Of a stretch of 64,000 bases of DNA, positions 9,262 to 48,727 are shown piece by piece (within the stretch, counting starts at the first letter, position 1; each line of letters opens with the position of its first letter). Made by a program: the position numbers and the translations under genes. The notes beneath the pieces are model-generated. The model ran no database searches and was not told where the DNA came from. It saw nothing but the letters and a program-made list of their open reading frames with translations. The DNA comes from Flammeovirga kamogawensis. Lineage in GTDB: Bacteria; Bacteroidota; Bacteroidia; Cytophagales; Flammeovirgaceae. The stretch is from NCBI RefSeq assembly GCF_018736065.1, contig NZ_CP076128.1:434001-498000 (forward strand), read 5' to 3'.

Positions 9262-9732
9262 AATAATCTAAGAAAAATGTGTGGTATTCTAATTTTATTA
9301 AAAATCAACCTCGAATCTCACATTGTAAGAAATTTACAATAGTTGTAAATGAGGTTTATTGTTGATGGGGAATATTAATTAATTTTTACTATTTCATTAC
9401 AATAAAAGACGGGCAATTAAAAAGTAGAAAATTCTACTTTGAGTAGATGTATATAGCCGTTATTAGTTAAAATGGTAAAAGCGCAAGTTTTTAGCTAATT
9501 TTTTTTGAAGAAATTTAATGCTAGTAATACAAATTATCTTTTAATCTCAATATTTACGTTGTTTGTCGAAATATTAGAAAAGTGCAATTTTAAACTATCA
9601 ACTACATGTGTTCACATAGCGCCTATTTTTCATTCAGTCAAGTAAATTAGTAGAAATTTTTTTTATTTTTTTTTTGATAAATCATCCTTTCAATTCCTTG
9701 CAAAACTGCCAAAAACACTATTTATTTGTTAG
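9262..9732. other. Intergenic region with stem-loop and inverted repeat, no gene
   Basis: I see no credible coding sequence here. Two structures stand out. The first is a long imperfect stem-loop at 9304-9366: ATCAAC/GTTGAT and CTC/GAG arms enclose an inner ATTGTAA/TTACAAT hairpin. The second is a 20-bp inverted repeat at 9421-9440 with arms AAAGTAGAA/TTCTACTTT. The second looks like a protein-binding site and lies about 290 bases before the cobalamin riboswitch. The promoter for the nrdBA leader should lie near 9650-9730 but I cannot point to it with confidence. Confidence 0.4.
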
Positions 9733-9911
9733 AACGATGGTGCCAGACATAAGATTTAAATTTTATGTAAGGTGAAAAGGGAATTAGGTGAAAATCCTAT
9801 GCTGATCCCGCAGCTGTAAAGCACGAGAACTTGTTTAAACTATATCCACTATACTTAGATGATTATGGGAAGGATAGGCAAGTAGTGCTGAGCCAGAAGA
9901 CCTGCCATCGT
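9733..9911 (+). promoter_or_regulatory. Cobalamin riboswitch upstream of nrdBA
   Basis: The conserved cobalamin aptamer landmarks appear in order. ACGATGGTGCC starts the outer stem. AGGTGAAAATCCTATGCTGA (9786-9805) carries the conserved GGTGAAAATCC. ATCCCGCAGCTGTAAAGC follows, then AGTGCTGAGCCAGAAGACCT, the B12 box, ending CCTGCCATCGT, which pairs back with the start (CGATGG/CCATCG). It lies 172 bases before nrdB. Binding of a cobalamin should reduce expression of the class I reductase when B12 is plentiful. The expression platform is not clear; a perfect hairpin AGGTGA-ACTA-TCACCT at 10037-10052 sits just before the start codon and could control translation. Confidence 0.93.
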
Positions 9912-10083
9912 GTGCTGAATATTTTCTTCGGGAAAAATAAGAAAAGCCAAAACAAATCGTCTGAATAACAATTATACATATTAGTATTGTCTACAGACCT
10001 TTGCGTTGTGAACAACAGCAAGATTTTTATTGTGTGAGGTGAACTATCACCTGTGTTGTAATAAATGAAAAACTTTAATTTTT

Positions 10084-11110: not shown

Positions 11111-12850
11111 ATGGTAAGAGGGACTTACACCAAATATATCACCACCTCAGTTCCACAACTTATGTCAGAAATTAACACTGCACCGGAAGTTTCACAATTA
11201 GATCCTCACCCAAAATGGATGACAAGCGAAGGCTTGCAAACACTAAAAAATGGTTATTTATTAGAAGGTGAAACAGTACGAGATGCTGTTACACGTATTT
11301 CTAAATCTGCTGCTGCTAAATTAAAACGTCCTGATTTCGAGAAGAGATTCTTTGATGCTATATGGAATAATTATTTATGTCCAGCTTCACCTGTATGGTC
11401 TAATATGGGTACAGAAAGAGGATTGCCAATTAGTTGTTTTGGTAGTTATGTACCAGATAGTATTGCAGGTATTGGTTCTACACTAGCCGAGGTAATGATG
11501 ATGTCTAAAATTGGAGGAGGTACTTCAATTAACGTTTCAGATGTTCGTCCACGTGGTGCTGAAATTACAAATAACGGAACAAGTAATGGTGTATATCCTT
11601 TCTTAGAGATGTTTGATTCTGTAATTAATGGAACAAACCAAGGGAATACACGTAGAGGTATGCTTGCCGCTTATTTAGATGTTGAACATGCTGATATTGA
11701 TGAGTTTTTGACAATTAAGGATGTCGGGAAATCAATCCAAAATATTTTTATGGGCGTTTCTGTTTCTGATAACTTTATCCAAAAAGTTAAAGAAGGTGAT
11801 AGAAGAAGCCGTGAGGTTTGGGCAAAAGTTTTAAAGTCTCGTATAGAGAAGGGTATACCTTACATTCTTTATAAAGACAATGCAAACAACCAACGCCCAA
11901 GATGGTATAAAGATCAGAATATGGAGATTAAAGCTTCAAATTTATGTTCTGAAATTATGCTTCCATCGAGTGAAGATGAATCATTTGTTTGTTGTTTATC
12001 TTCTTTAAATTTAGTGCGTTACGACGAGTGGAAAGATACTGATTTAGTAGAAACAGCAACTTTCTTTTTGGATGCCGTAATGGAAGAATTCATTGAGAAA
12101 GCAACAGGAATTGAGCATATGGAAAGAGCAGTTAATTTTGCTAAAAACCATAGAGCTTTAGGTCTTGGTGTTTTAGGCTGGCACAGTTTCTTACAAAAGA
12201 AAAAGATTCCATTTGTTGGTATTGCAGCAGATTCTTGGACTAGAATTATATTCAAGCAAATTAAAGAACAATCTATTAGAGCATCTGAGAAATTAGCAGT
12301 AGCTTATGGCGAACCTAAAGTAATGATGGATACTGGTAGAAGAAATACTACATTACTAACTGTTGCTCCAACAACTTCTAATGCTTTAATAGCTGGAGGA
12401 TACAGTACAGGTATTGAGCCAATTGCTAGTAACTACTATGTAATGGATTCAGCAAAAGGAGCATTTACACGTAAAAACAAGCAATTAGAAGAATTACTTG
12501 ATGAGAAAGGATTGAATACATCCGATGTTTGGAAACAAATTCTAGCAGATGGAGGTTCGGTACAAAATATTGGAGGTTTAACTGAGGAAGAGAAAGAATT
12601 GTTCTTAACGTTTAAAGAAATTAATCAAATGCAGATTGTACGTCAGGCTGCATTAAGACAAACATTCTTAGACCAATCTCAGAGTTTAAATCTTAATTTC
12701 CCACCAACAACATCTGTAAAAGATATAAATTCAGTAATGTTAGAAGCTCACGCTTTAGGAGTGAAAACATTATATTACCAAAGAAGTGAAAGTATACTGA
12801 GAACACAAATGAATGTGACTCAAGATACATGTGTTTCTTGTGAAGGTTAG
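11111..12850 (+). CDS. nrdA: Ribonucleotide reductase class I large (catalytic) subunit, short form
   Basis: Catalytic alpha subunit. Visible active-site residues are the first redox cysteine in LPISCFGSYV, the N-x-C-x-E triad in SNLCSEI, the second redox cysteine in ESFVCCLSSLNL, the adjacent tyrosines in KTLYYQRSES for radical transfer, and the C-terminal CVSC pair for reduction by thioredoxin or glutaredoxin. At 579 residues it is much shorter than E. coli NrdA (about 760) because the N-terminal ATP cone is missing, so activity regulation by dATP through that domain is not expected. The start is uncertain: ATG at 11111 is used here, but ATG at 11162 (MSEINTAPEV) is equally or more plausible. 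It is co-transcribed with nrdB and ends in a terminator. Confidence 0.9.
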   Translation: MVRGTYTKYITTSVPQLMSEINTAPEVSQLDPHPKWMTSEGLQTLKNGYLLEGETVRDAVTRISKSAAAKLKRPDFEKRFFDAIWNNYLCPASPVWSNMGTERGLPISCFGSYVPDSIAGIGSTLAEVMMMSKIGGGTSINVSDVRPRGAEITNNGTSNGVYPFLEMFDSVINGTNQGNTRRGMLAAYLDVEHADIDEFLTIKDVGKSIQNIFMGVSVSDNFIQKVKEGDRRSREVWAKVLKSRIEKGIPYILYKDNANNQRPRWYKDQNMEIKASNLCSEIMLPSSEDESFVCCLSSLNLVRYDEWKDTDLVETATFFLDAVMEEFIEKATGIEHMERAVNFAKNHRALGLGVLGWHSFLQKKKIPFVGIAADSWTRIIFKQIKEQSIRASEKLAVAYGEPKVMMDTGRRNTTLLTVAPTTSNALIAGGYSTGIEPIASNYYVMDSAKGAFTRKNKQLEELLDEKGLNTSDVWKQILADGGSVQNIGGLTEEEKELFLTFKEINQMQIVRQAALRQTFLDQSQSLNLNFPPTTSVKDINSVMLEAHALGVKTLYYQRSESILRTQMNVTQDTCVSCEG

Positions 12851-12880: not shown

Positions 12881-12927
12881 AAAGCTGTTAGGCAATGAAG
12901 TTAATTCATGCTTAACAGCTTTTTTTA
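12881..12927 (+). terminator. Rho-independent terminator after nrdA
   Basis: Outer stem AAAGCTGTTA (12881-12890) with TAACAGCTTT and an inner imperfect hairpin (GCAATGAA/TTCATGC), followed by a run of seven T. Confidence 0.85.
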
Positions 12928-13002
12928 TTTGATTTTTATCGCTGATCAAATAAATGTTCTATCGCTTACACTTTGATAATTAAGGGGAGATTTAAATTTC
13001 TT

Positions 13003-13338
13003 GACAAGACCCTCCGGATGCTAAAATAGCAAGAGGAGGGCTTGTCTATAAGTATGGCGGGAGAGTGTCCCCGCGCTCATAAATGAGCCAAATTAATTAT
13101 TTCAATGTCATTATAACATTGAATGGTTCTGTTAAGAACAAGAAGAGTCGGAGATATATTAAAAATATTCCTACTTTCATTGGTTAGAAAGTGTTTTCAA
13201 TTATAACTAATATGCTACTTATAATAAGATCCTAAATGGAGTTGTGTTGGGGAAGGTCAGAGAGACCTTATTAATCCCTCTGACTTTATTGTAAAGTGAT
13301 AGACAAACACTTTACGGTTATACCCGCCATATATCTTA
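13003..13338 (+). ncRNA. Unassigned highly structured RNA candidate
   Basis: No coding frame fits. Hairpin A (13003-13046) has GACAAG/CTTGTC and CCCTCC/GGAGGG stems around a GGA/AGA internal loop and a TGCT/AGCA tip. A closing stem pairs TATGGCGGG (13053-13061) with CCCGCCATA (13323-13331), extended by TAAG/CTTA. Inside lie hairpins GCTCA/TGAGC (13075-13088), TTCAATGT/ACATTGAA (13101-13123), GTTCT/AGAAC (13126-13139), ACTTTC/GAAAGT (13173-13192), GTCAGAG/CTCTGAC (13256-13284, competing with AAGGTC/GACCTT) and GTAAAGTG/CACTTTAC (13291-13315). The last loop, ATAGACAA (13299-13306), is fully complementary to TTGTCTAT at 13042-13049, so a pseudoknot or switch is possible. It is more GC-rich than its surroundings, sits between two terminators, and does not match tmRNA, RNase P, SRP or 6S landmarks I know. 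The strand is inferred from flanking terminators. Confidence 0.6.
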
Positions 13339-13400
13339 ATTGAAGTATTTAATGTTTTTCTTTCATTAATTACTGTTTTTTCATTTTCATACTATAGAAT

Positions 13401-13431
13401 ACACCTCATAAATTGAGAGCTAGGTGTTTTT
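13401..13431 (+). terminator. Terminator downstream of structured RNA
   Basis: ACACCT (13401-13406) pairs with AGGTGT (13422-13427) and a short T-run follows. There is no open reading frame between the nrdA terminator and here, so it probably ends the structured RNA transcript. Confidence 0.6.
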
Positions 13432-13608
13432 GTTAAATAATTCGTATTGCCCTAATTATATCTTATATGATAAGATAAGGCTTGTTTTTTCATTTTTACT
13501 GTACTGCAATTGTACAAATGAAAAATTAATTTTACAAATATTAATCAAAAGCTAAAAATGTGTGAAATTGTACTATTTTAATGTAAATAAGTAGATTGTG
13601 ATTCAAGC

Positions 13609-19927: not shown

Positions 19928-20088
19928 TTGAAAGTTATAAATTGTACCAAATACATTTAAATAGTTGGATAATTTACGCATCTAAAAAAATTAGAAAAAA
20001 TTAAAAATAAACAGTAAATCAATGTCATATGCTTTAAAAATCCATAGAAAACCATGAATTATTACAATTTGTAACTATCTTGCGGCGT

Positions 20089-20194
20089 GCTTATCAAGAA
20101 TGACAGAGAGAACGGGCTCGTAGATGTCATGGCAACCGTTGTTCCCAACGAAAGGTGCCAAATCCCGCTTCGGAAGTGTCCGAGAAAGATGAGC
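20089..20194 (+). promoter_or_regulatory. SAM-I riboswitch (S-box) upstream of metH
   Basis: The S-box landmarks are present: CTTATCAAGAATGACAGAGA at the 5' side, ATGGCAACC, AAGGTGCCAAATCCC, then CGAGAAAGATGAGC, whose GATGAGC (20188-20194) pairs with GCTTATC (20089-20095) to close P1. S-adenosylmethionine binding should shut off metH. Downstream, TTAAGCACG at 20232-20240 is complementary to the 5' strand of P1 and could be the competing partner, and a hairpin CCTTAT/ATAAGG near 20250-20270, inside ACGTTT/AAACGT arms, precedes the start codon. Confidence 0.9.
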
Positions 20195-20297
20195 TGTAAC
20201 ATTCGTTTTTAGGATGAATTGTCTCAGAAATTAAGCACGTTTTTATCTCCTTATAAATAGATAAGGGGTATGTGAAACGTAACTTTCAAATAGTAAG

Positions 20298-29760: not shown

Positions 29761-29899
29761 AATGTTATAAGTTTTTAAAGGAAGTATTCTTGAGAATACA
29801 TTGTCTTGAAGTTTGTAATTATAGGAGTGTGGGTATCAGTTAAACACGTAGCAAAGTGTTTAGTGATTCAACTTTTCACTCGAAGTTGTTTTACAAAGT

Positions 29900-30060
29900 T
29901 ATTCATGGTAGGTCTTCTGACTTCTCTTCTTTTCATTATTACCTTCTCGATACAATCAATGGTATTAATAATGCATTTTAAAGAGTTACAGCTGCGAGGA
30001 CAGTTCTAGATTTACACTAGATTCCCTGTTATTTCTTTGGTATTCTGAAACCATGAATAC
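29900..30060 (-). promoter_or_regulatory. Cobalamin riboswitch upstream of nrdD
   Basis: On the minus strand the order is: stem ATTCATGGT (30058-30050), AACAGGGAATCTAGTGTAAA with the conserved GGGAATC(T)nGTGTAAATCT, CCTCGCAGCTGTAAC, and the B12 box GTCAGAAGACCTACC, closing with ACCATGAAT (29909-29901) that pairs perfectly with the opening stem. It ends about 140 bases before the nrdD start. I see AAACAC/GTGTTT in between but no clear terminator, so control may act on translation. Confidence 0.9.
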
Positions 30061-30272
30061 TTAAATTTGTAGGATAAAAAGAGAAGTTGCACTGATGACA
30101 ATCATTAAAATAAGTTTGGAAAATAAGCGCCTTAGAAACCATCTATTTTAAGGCATTTTTTGATATCAATTTTTATATGAAAAACTAAAAATTTATCTTC
30201 ACGTTTTAGTTTTGATTTGTAGGTAACTGCATAATTAAAGTTTTTGTGTGGCCTAATTTTAAAATAATATAT

Positions 30273-48587: not shown

Positions 48588-48727
48588 GAAGATATCCTGA
48601 CTTTTTTATTAAGATGCCCTTCCCAAATTACTTCAGTGGTTAATACATCATTCTATTATTAATAATAGATAAAATTACAGTAGCGGGGACTGTTTTGGAT
48701 TTTCACCAAATTCCCTCCAGAATCTTG
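48588..48727 (-). promoter_or_regulatory. Cobalamin riboswitch upstream of btu operon
   Basis: On the minus strand: GGAGGGAATTTGGTGAAAAT, with the conserved GGGAA and GGTGAAAATCC, then AGTCCCCGCTACTGTAA, a long variable arm, AATTTGGGAAGGGCATC, and a degenerate B12 box GTCAGGATATCTTC. The outer stem AAGAT (48726-48722) pairs with ATCTT (48593-48589). It ends 40 bases before the BtuF-like start codon, so control of translation is likely. The aptamer is shorter and less canonical than the one before nrdBA. Confidence 0.88.

What the first reader, a model, noticed from the sequence alone, without database searches (positions are those of the whole stretch)
13003..13338. Unassigned ~340-nt structured RNA downstream of nrdBA
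Seen directly: no reading frame, a GC-rich closing stem spanning about 285 bases (13053-13061 with 13323-13331), at least six more hairpins of 5-13 bp, and an isolated hairpin A at 13003-13046. The loop of the last hairpin (ATAGACAA, 13299-13306) is exactly complementary to TTGTCTAT at 13042-13049, which is also the 3' arm of hairpin A, so a pseudoknot or two-state switch is possible. The region is bracketed by the nrdA terminator and its own terminator. Known landmarks of tmRNA, RNase P, SRP, 6S and group I/II introns are missing. Inference: a new non-coding RNA class, perhaps Bacteroidota-specific.
Basis: partly seen in the sequence, partly recalled or inferred. Interest (0 to 1): 0.75.

Follow-up and report, generated by a model that had tools for sequence, protein, structure and literature searches.

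The report
Flammeovirga-only structured RNA gene
A stretch between two genes in marine Flammeovirga bacteria looks like the gene for a large folded RNA that matches no catalogued family; it appears to be read from the opposite DNA strand to the one first assumed, and its job is unknown.

Summary
All 9 Flammeovirga genomes held carry a homologue with nearly invariant core strands and covarying P2, P3 and hairpin-A stems. Read on MINUS, the non-Watson-Crick cells of the aligned helices (P5 left out) are 23 G-U, 3 A-C and 13 others; on plus, G-U and A-C swap. Consensus energy and covariation also favour minus. The RNA then runs from about 13335 down to 13003, convergent with nrdA: P1 closes its 5' end, hairpin A is its 3' hairpin, and a two-way terminator follows (15-93 nt further, 9 of 9). 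The loop/tail complementarity is kept in all 9 except one cell. The adjoining genes differ between members, so it is a stand-alone gene, not a leader or nrdA 3'UTR. No Rfam family matches. RNase P and tmRNA lie elsewhere. No credible homologue was seen outside the genus (limited sensitivity). Best reading: a new genus-specific structured ncRNA whose 3' tail either docks into the core or is held in hairpin A. Expression and function are untested.

The parts
12994..13335 (-). Proposed RNA gene, read right to left: 5' end near 13335 (inferred), conserved 3' flank (AAGAAATTT on minus) ending near 12994
   Evidence: homologues in 9 of 9 genus genomes; strand from G-U/A-C asymmetry; model R2 hit 13041-13332 minus, 153.9 bits (the window is one of the model's own sequences)
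13323..13330 (-). P1 5' strand (AUGGCGGG); pairs with 13054-13061
   Evidence: invariant in 9 of 9
13291..13315 (-). P2 hairpin (13308-13315 with 13291-13298); its 9-nt loop holds UUGUCUAU (13299-13306)
   Evidence: 6 of 8 pairs with double changes, 90.3% of cells paired on minus
13256..13284 (-). P3 hairpin
   Evidence: 7 of 11 pairs with double changes, 96.0% of cells paired
13250..13253 (-). P4 5' strand (UCCC), pairs with GGGA at 13068-13071
   Evidence: never varies in 9 of 9; G004 has one G fewer beside it
13217..13220 (-). Linker strand AAGU of the second tail contact (PK2), pairs with ACUU at 13050-13053
   Evidence: invariant in 9 of 9 inside a variable region
13092..13211 (-). P5 (13203-13211 with 13092-13100) enclosing a variable, branched domain; site of a repeat insertion in G004
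   Evidence: 6-sequence alignment A5: 0-2 mismatched pairs per sequence in the whole structure; only 65.4% of cells pair in A3, where four rows are shifted by one column; insertion
13075..13088 (-). P6 hairpin GCUCA/UGAGC
   Evidence: invariant in 9 of 9
13062..13067 (-). J4/1, CACUCN, nearly invariant unpaired linker between the 3' strands of P4 and P1
   Evidence: last position U or A; one C-to-A change in G007
13054..13061 (-). P1 3' strand (CCCGCCAU)
   Evidence: invariant in 9 of 9
13042..13053 (-). 3' tail ACUUAUAGACAA: ACUU pairs with the linker (PK2), AUAGACAA with the loop of P2 (PK1)
   Evidence: 71 of 72 PK1 cells and 36 of 36 PK2 cells Watson-Crick; the exception is one A-C cell in G002 on minus
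13003..13046 (-). Hairpin A: basal GACAAG/CUUGUC overlaps the PK1 strand; covarying distal stem; single bulged U at the junction
   Evidence: double changes in 5 distal pairs, 8 sequences; bulge in the minus fold of 9 of 9
12881..12926 (.). Two-way terminator-like hairpin shared with the convergent nrdA; a stem of 9-15 perfect pairs with A- and T-rich flanks lies 15-93 nt beyond hairpin A in 9 of 9 loci
   Evidence: termination itself inferred
13337..13347 (-). Promoter-like region (TACNATTW in 7 of 9 members; the window and G002 read TACTTCAATTA or TACTTCAATAA)
   Evidence: by eye; weak resemblance to the recalled TAnnTTTG box

Best explanation
A stand-alone non-coding RNA gene of about 330-350 nt on the minus strand, restricted to Flammeovirga as far as searched. 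Shown by sequence: P1 closes a multi-branched core (P2, P3, P4, P5, P6); after P1 a 3' tail is complementary to the loop of P2 (PK1, 8 bp) and to the P4-P5 linker (PK2, 4 bp); the same GACAAG of the tail also forms the base of the 3' hairpin A. Inferred mechanism: as the transcript grows, the tail first docks onto the P2 loop and the linker and locks the core around the near-invariant CACUC linker. Hairpin A, completed last, can strip GACAAG from the dock by branch migration at its conserved bulged U. The RNA would thus toggle between a docked and an undocked form and act in trans, most likely as a protein- or ligand-binding RNA, ending at a terminator shared with the convergent gene.
For: Homologue in 9 of 9 genus genomes, one place in the window's genome. 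Double-change counts above shuffled and slid controls. A model from six members finds the other three at the right place and strand, 112-127 bits. Minus strand: 23 G-U against 3 A-C cells with P5 left out, 29 against 7 with P5; RNAalifold -54.7 against -45.8 kcal/mol on A4 and -49.0 against -43.4 on A3, covariation term about three times larger on minus; minus MFE lower in 7 of 9, and P4 complete in 7 of 9 minus against 4 of 9 plus MFEs. Flanking genes vary while the RNA stays. PK1 (-7.1) and basal hairpin A (-5.6, or -7.3 with the extra pair of one clade) are near-equal as isolated duplexes, as a switch would need.
Against: No transcript has been seen. P1, P4, P6, PK2 and nearly all of PK1 are invariant, so covariation cannot test them. 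Plus MFE is lower for G002 and G001, and P1 is complete in 8 of 9 MFEs on either strand, so folding energy alone does not decide the strand. G-U changes are shared within clades, so independent events are fewer than 23. The further-pair-types measure does not exceed shuffles. Six of 9 loci share CTATCGC to the left of hairpin A, which a plus-strand promoter could use. Hairpin A has no U-run close to its base. The promoter-like box is weak and differs in the window itself. No ligand, partner or target is known; trans action is inference.
Confidence: 0.75

Rival explanations
1. Same RNA, but transcribed from the plus strand, with hairpin A at the 5' end.
For: The structure is nearly symmetric; plus MFE z -8.1; plus MFE lower for G002 and G001; a terminator-like repeat on plus at 13401-13431 in the window; CTATCGC left of hairpin A in 6 of 9.
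Against: Read on plus, 3 G-U against 23 A-C cells; weaker consensus energy and covariation; the terminator-like repeat is not conserved; in G008 only 15 nt separate the terminator of the upstream gene from hairpin A.
Confidence: 0.13
2. Cis-regulatory element: a riboswitch-like leader with hairpin A as terminator, or a 3'UTR element of nrdA.
For: A tail shared between an aptamer-like core and a following hairpin is how terminator-type riboswitches are built (recalled); a cobalamin riboswitch lies upstream of nrdB.
Against: On minus, what follows is the convergent gene read antisense. On plus, the upstream gene is nrdA in 7 of 9 and other genes in G002 and G003; the next gene on the right differs among the 8 loci where it was seen (G006 ends too soon): EEP-like in 3, hydrolase-like in 3, SusD-like pointing at the RNA in 2 (labels read from the sequences, not searched).
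Confidence: 0.06
3. A strongly diverged housekeeping RNA (such as 6S) of Flammeovirga.
For: No 6S was found in the window's genome with either Rfam model; genus-wide presence.
Against: The 6S models are a weak test here (RF01685 rang in 0 of 14 controls; RF00013 in 5 of 14, none Bacteroidota), so absence says little; the multi-branched fold is not the rod with a central bubble of 6S (recalled).
Confidence: 0.04
4. A DNA-level element (mobile-element end, recombination or protein-binding site) whose inverted repeats only look like RNA stems.
For: Strong inverted repeats; a repeat family is abundant in some genus members.
Against: The G-U over A-C asymmetry has no evident DNA reason (inference); same neighbourhood in the genus; no match in plasmid or phage collections.
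Confidence: 0.02

Closest known systems
Orphan large structured bacterial ncRNAs (OLE, GOLLD, ROOL, raiA and similar; recalled)
   Same: Stand-alone, highly structured, covarying, function not known at discovery
   Different: No Rfam match better than E 6.1 in 12900-13500; found in one genus only; no fixed partner gene
Terminator-type riboswitches such as cobalamin (RF00174)
   Same: A tail strand shared between a loop contact and a following hairpin (mechanism recalled)
   Different: No gene downstream to regulate; the cobalamin riboswitches of the window are elsewhere and detected normally
tmRNA (RF00023) and RNase P RNA (RF00010)
   Same: Similar length, pseudoknots (recalled)
   Different: Both found at other places in the same genome; no match here
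6S RNA (RF00013, RF01685)
   Same: Closed by a terminal stem
   Different: No match; different architecture (recalled)

Membership tests
Any Rfam 15 family | Score above the gathering threshold | tested here: not met
   window: 4 hits, none here; 12900-13500: 3 matches, best E 6.1; 5 of 8 other homologue loci: 3 weak matches under the gathering score, none on the RNA
tmRNA | Detected tRNA-like and tag parts, or match to RF00023 | tested here: not met
   ARAGORN 0 genes in the window; tmRNA at G000:C1:1222100-1222509, 114.7 bits
RNase P RNA | Match to RF00010 | tested here: not met
   The one match is at G000:C1:3580796-3581193, 272.7 bits
6S RNA | Match to RF00013 or RF01685 | tested here: inconclusive
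   No match in the genome, but RF01685 rang in 0 of 14 controls and RF00013 in 5 of 14, none of them Bacteroidota
SRP RNA | Match to an Rfam SRP family | tested here: not met
   No SRP hit in the scans of the window; the rest of the genome was not searched for it
Cis-regulatory riboswitch | Conserved association with the 5' end of a gene or operon | tested here: not met
Stand-alone structured ncRNA gene | Conserved structure with compensatory change, independent of neighbours | tested here: met
Stand-alone structured ncRNA gene | Observed transcript | not testable with these tools
   No RNA-seq available

The most novel reading that the evidence does not exclude
A genus-specific RNA machine of unknown class with a built-in two-state 3' tail: docked into the core by two contacts, or withdrawn by the 3' hairpin, so that end-of-transcription folding or a bound factor sets its activity in trans.
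Probability: 0.3. Interest if true: 0.65.

Novelty: new member of a known kind. Interest (0 to 1): 0.5.

Why it matters
If confirmed, it is a new RNA family, conserved enough across Flammeovirga to suggest an important role, with a core of nearly invariant strands that points to a specific partner. It also shows that the strand of a near-symmetric structured RNA should be settled from G-U/A-C patterns before anything is built on it. The two mutually exclusive uses of the tail make the mechanism directly testable by paired mutations.

Tried and rejected
Plus-strand model (R1): it detected the genus members but left A-C mismatches in P2 and P3, so I replaced it with the minus-strand R2.

Homologues outside the genus. 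Five non-genus genomes had weak BLAST matches (E 4e-6 to 1e-3; four at query 332-401, one at 170-211); I dropped them as AT-rich chance without further test. The R2 match in G027 (31.3 bits, E 0.0023) is one long hairpin without the conserved core, and the one in G012 (20.9 bits, E 0.475) has a P1 that is not well paired; both judged chance. Of 20 genome and 7 viral pattern matches only the 5 Flammeovirga ones are full matches to R1. The nrdA loci of two other genera (L072, L073) have no match to R3. Sensitivity limit: the genome searches scored only a few first-look candidates per genome (up to 6, 5, 56), so a diverged relative can be missed.

6S searches found nothing but are a weak test. 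Papers: search listings for Flammeovirga with noncoding RNA, RNA-seq/transcriptom, riboswitch (0 papers), and structured/small RNA, and for Bacteroidetes structured RNAs; passages only of PMC8653839, PMC2864571 and PMC1892782. None of what I saw describes this RNA; supplements were not searched.

Full report
Observation. The window scan of Rfam gives three cobalamin and one SAM riboswitch, none here; the permissive scan of 12900-13500 gives three matches, best E 6.1.

Homologues. BLAST of 13003-13431 finds 14 of 97 genomes: all 9 of the genus, plus 5 weak matches that I dropped as AT-rich. Named loci from a pattern scan show the genus to be Flammeovirga (5 of 20 stretches). The window's genome holds one match. 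Covariance model R1 finds 9 of 390 genomes of the order at E up to 0.1, all of this genus, under strict filters, and 9 of 18 of the family at E up to 10. Corrected model R2 gives 11 of 38 relatives at E up to 10, of which 9 are the genus and 2 were judged chance, and 1 of 395 of the class, the window's own genome. These searches scored only a small part of the first-look candidates in most genomes, so they do not prove absence. No match in plasmid or phage records at E 0.01, nor for two core patterns in viral contigs. A model from six members (R3) finds the remaining three at 112-127 bits at the expected place and strand; its structure was drawn with all nine in view, so this tests sequence reach more than structure.

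Strand. Read on minus, the aligned helices without P5 (9 sequences) plus hairpin A (8 sequences, G004 left out) hold 513 Watson-Crick, 23 G-U, 3 A-C and 13 other cells. P5, which is misaligned in four rows, adds 6 G-U, 4 A-C and 24 other cells. On plus the G-U and A-C numbers swap. G-U asymmetry is the strongest strand information according to passages of PMC1892782, which also says that the problem is hard and that its own method fails for some families such as 7SK. Consensus energies and covariation favour minus on both alignments. MFE is lower on minus for 7 of 9; for G002 and G001 plus is lower; P1 is complete in 8 of 9 MFEs on each strand. A promoter-like box TACNATTW lies just upstream of P1 on minus in 7 of 9 (four of them close relatives); boxes that I read by eye before tmRNA and RNase P in this genome are TACATTTG and TACCTTTG (the Bacteroidota consensus TAnnTTTG is recalled). 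On plus, CTATCGC precedes hairpin A in 6 of 9, but in G008 the upstream terminator ends only 15 nt before hairpin A.

Anatomy on minus. P1 - P2 hairpin - P3 hairpin - P4 - linker - P5 with a variable domain - P6 - P4' - CACUCN - P1' - tail ACUUAUAGACAAG - hairpin A. Of 57 counted pairs on A3, 92.2% of cells pair and 15 pairs have double changes (shuffled mean 7.8, 0 of 500 reach it; slid versions 2-5); the further-pair-types measure is reached by 95 of 500 shuffles. P2 and P3 carry most of the covariation; P1, P4, P6 and PK2 never vary; PK1 departs by one A-C cell in G002. Hairpin A covaries in its distal stem, keeps GACAAG against CUUGUC or CUUGUU, and in all 9 minus folds has one bulged U at the junction. 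P5 pairs in 65.4% of A3 cells; in A5 (6 of 9 sequences) the whole structure has 0-2 mismatches per sequence.

Independence from neighbours. nrdA lies next to the RNA in 7 of 9; in G002 a 2163-aa ORF and in G003 seven ORFs of 90 aa or more lie between. On the other side the nearest ORF differs among the 8 loci where it was seen. A terminator-like hairpin of 9-15 perfect pairs with A- and T-rich flanks lies 15-93 nt beyond hairpin A in 9 of 9. In G004 a repeat of about 160 nt sits in the P5 domain while the core stays nearly intact. Either the domain is tolerant or this copy is beginning to decay: one G of the GGGG beside P4' is missing there, though GGGA can still pair.

Function. Not shown. 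The most likely mechanism is given in Best explanation; docking, competition and trans action are inferred. Isolated duplex energies are PK1 -7.1, hairpin A base -5.6 or -7.3, PK2 heptamer -3.8 kcal/mol; loop and tertiary costs are not included.

Verdict. Novelty is filed as a new member of a known kind (orphan structured ncRNAs) because nothing tested shows a new way of working.

Noticed in passing
L006 1252-1416 (G004:C100:12426-12590): A largely palindromic, MITE-like repeat of about 160 bp with inverted ends; 56, 47 and 54 matches in G004, G006 and G005 (both-strand matches of a palindrome counted), none in the window's genome.
   Followed up: partly
window 9721-9923 (+), 29890-30070 (-), 48590-48716 (-), 20088-20195 (+): Three cobalamin riboswitches and one SAM-I riboswitch in one 64-kb window; the first lies just upstream of nrdB.
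   Followed up: no
L075 and L076: A 2163-aa ORF (G002) and seven ORFs (G003) lie between nrdA and the RNA; in G002 a terminator like that of nrdA still precedes the RNA.
   Followed up: no
window 11111-12850: nrdA-like ORF of 579 aa, short for a class I large subunit (length recalled); matches at E 1e-50 in only 2 of 9 other genomes of the family.
   Followed up: no
window 13057-13074: On minus GCGGGGACACUCUCCCGC can also form a local hairpin (6 bp, -9.0 kcal/mol) that would exclude P1 and P4; five of its pairs are possible in all nine (by eye), so a second bistable element is possible.
   Followed up: partly
L087 654-754: Weak model match in another genus (G012) with a P2-like hairpin and loop UUUGACUAUG; judged chance.
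   Followed up: partly
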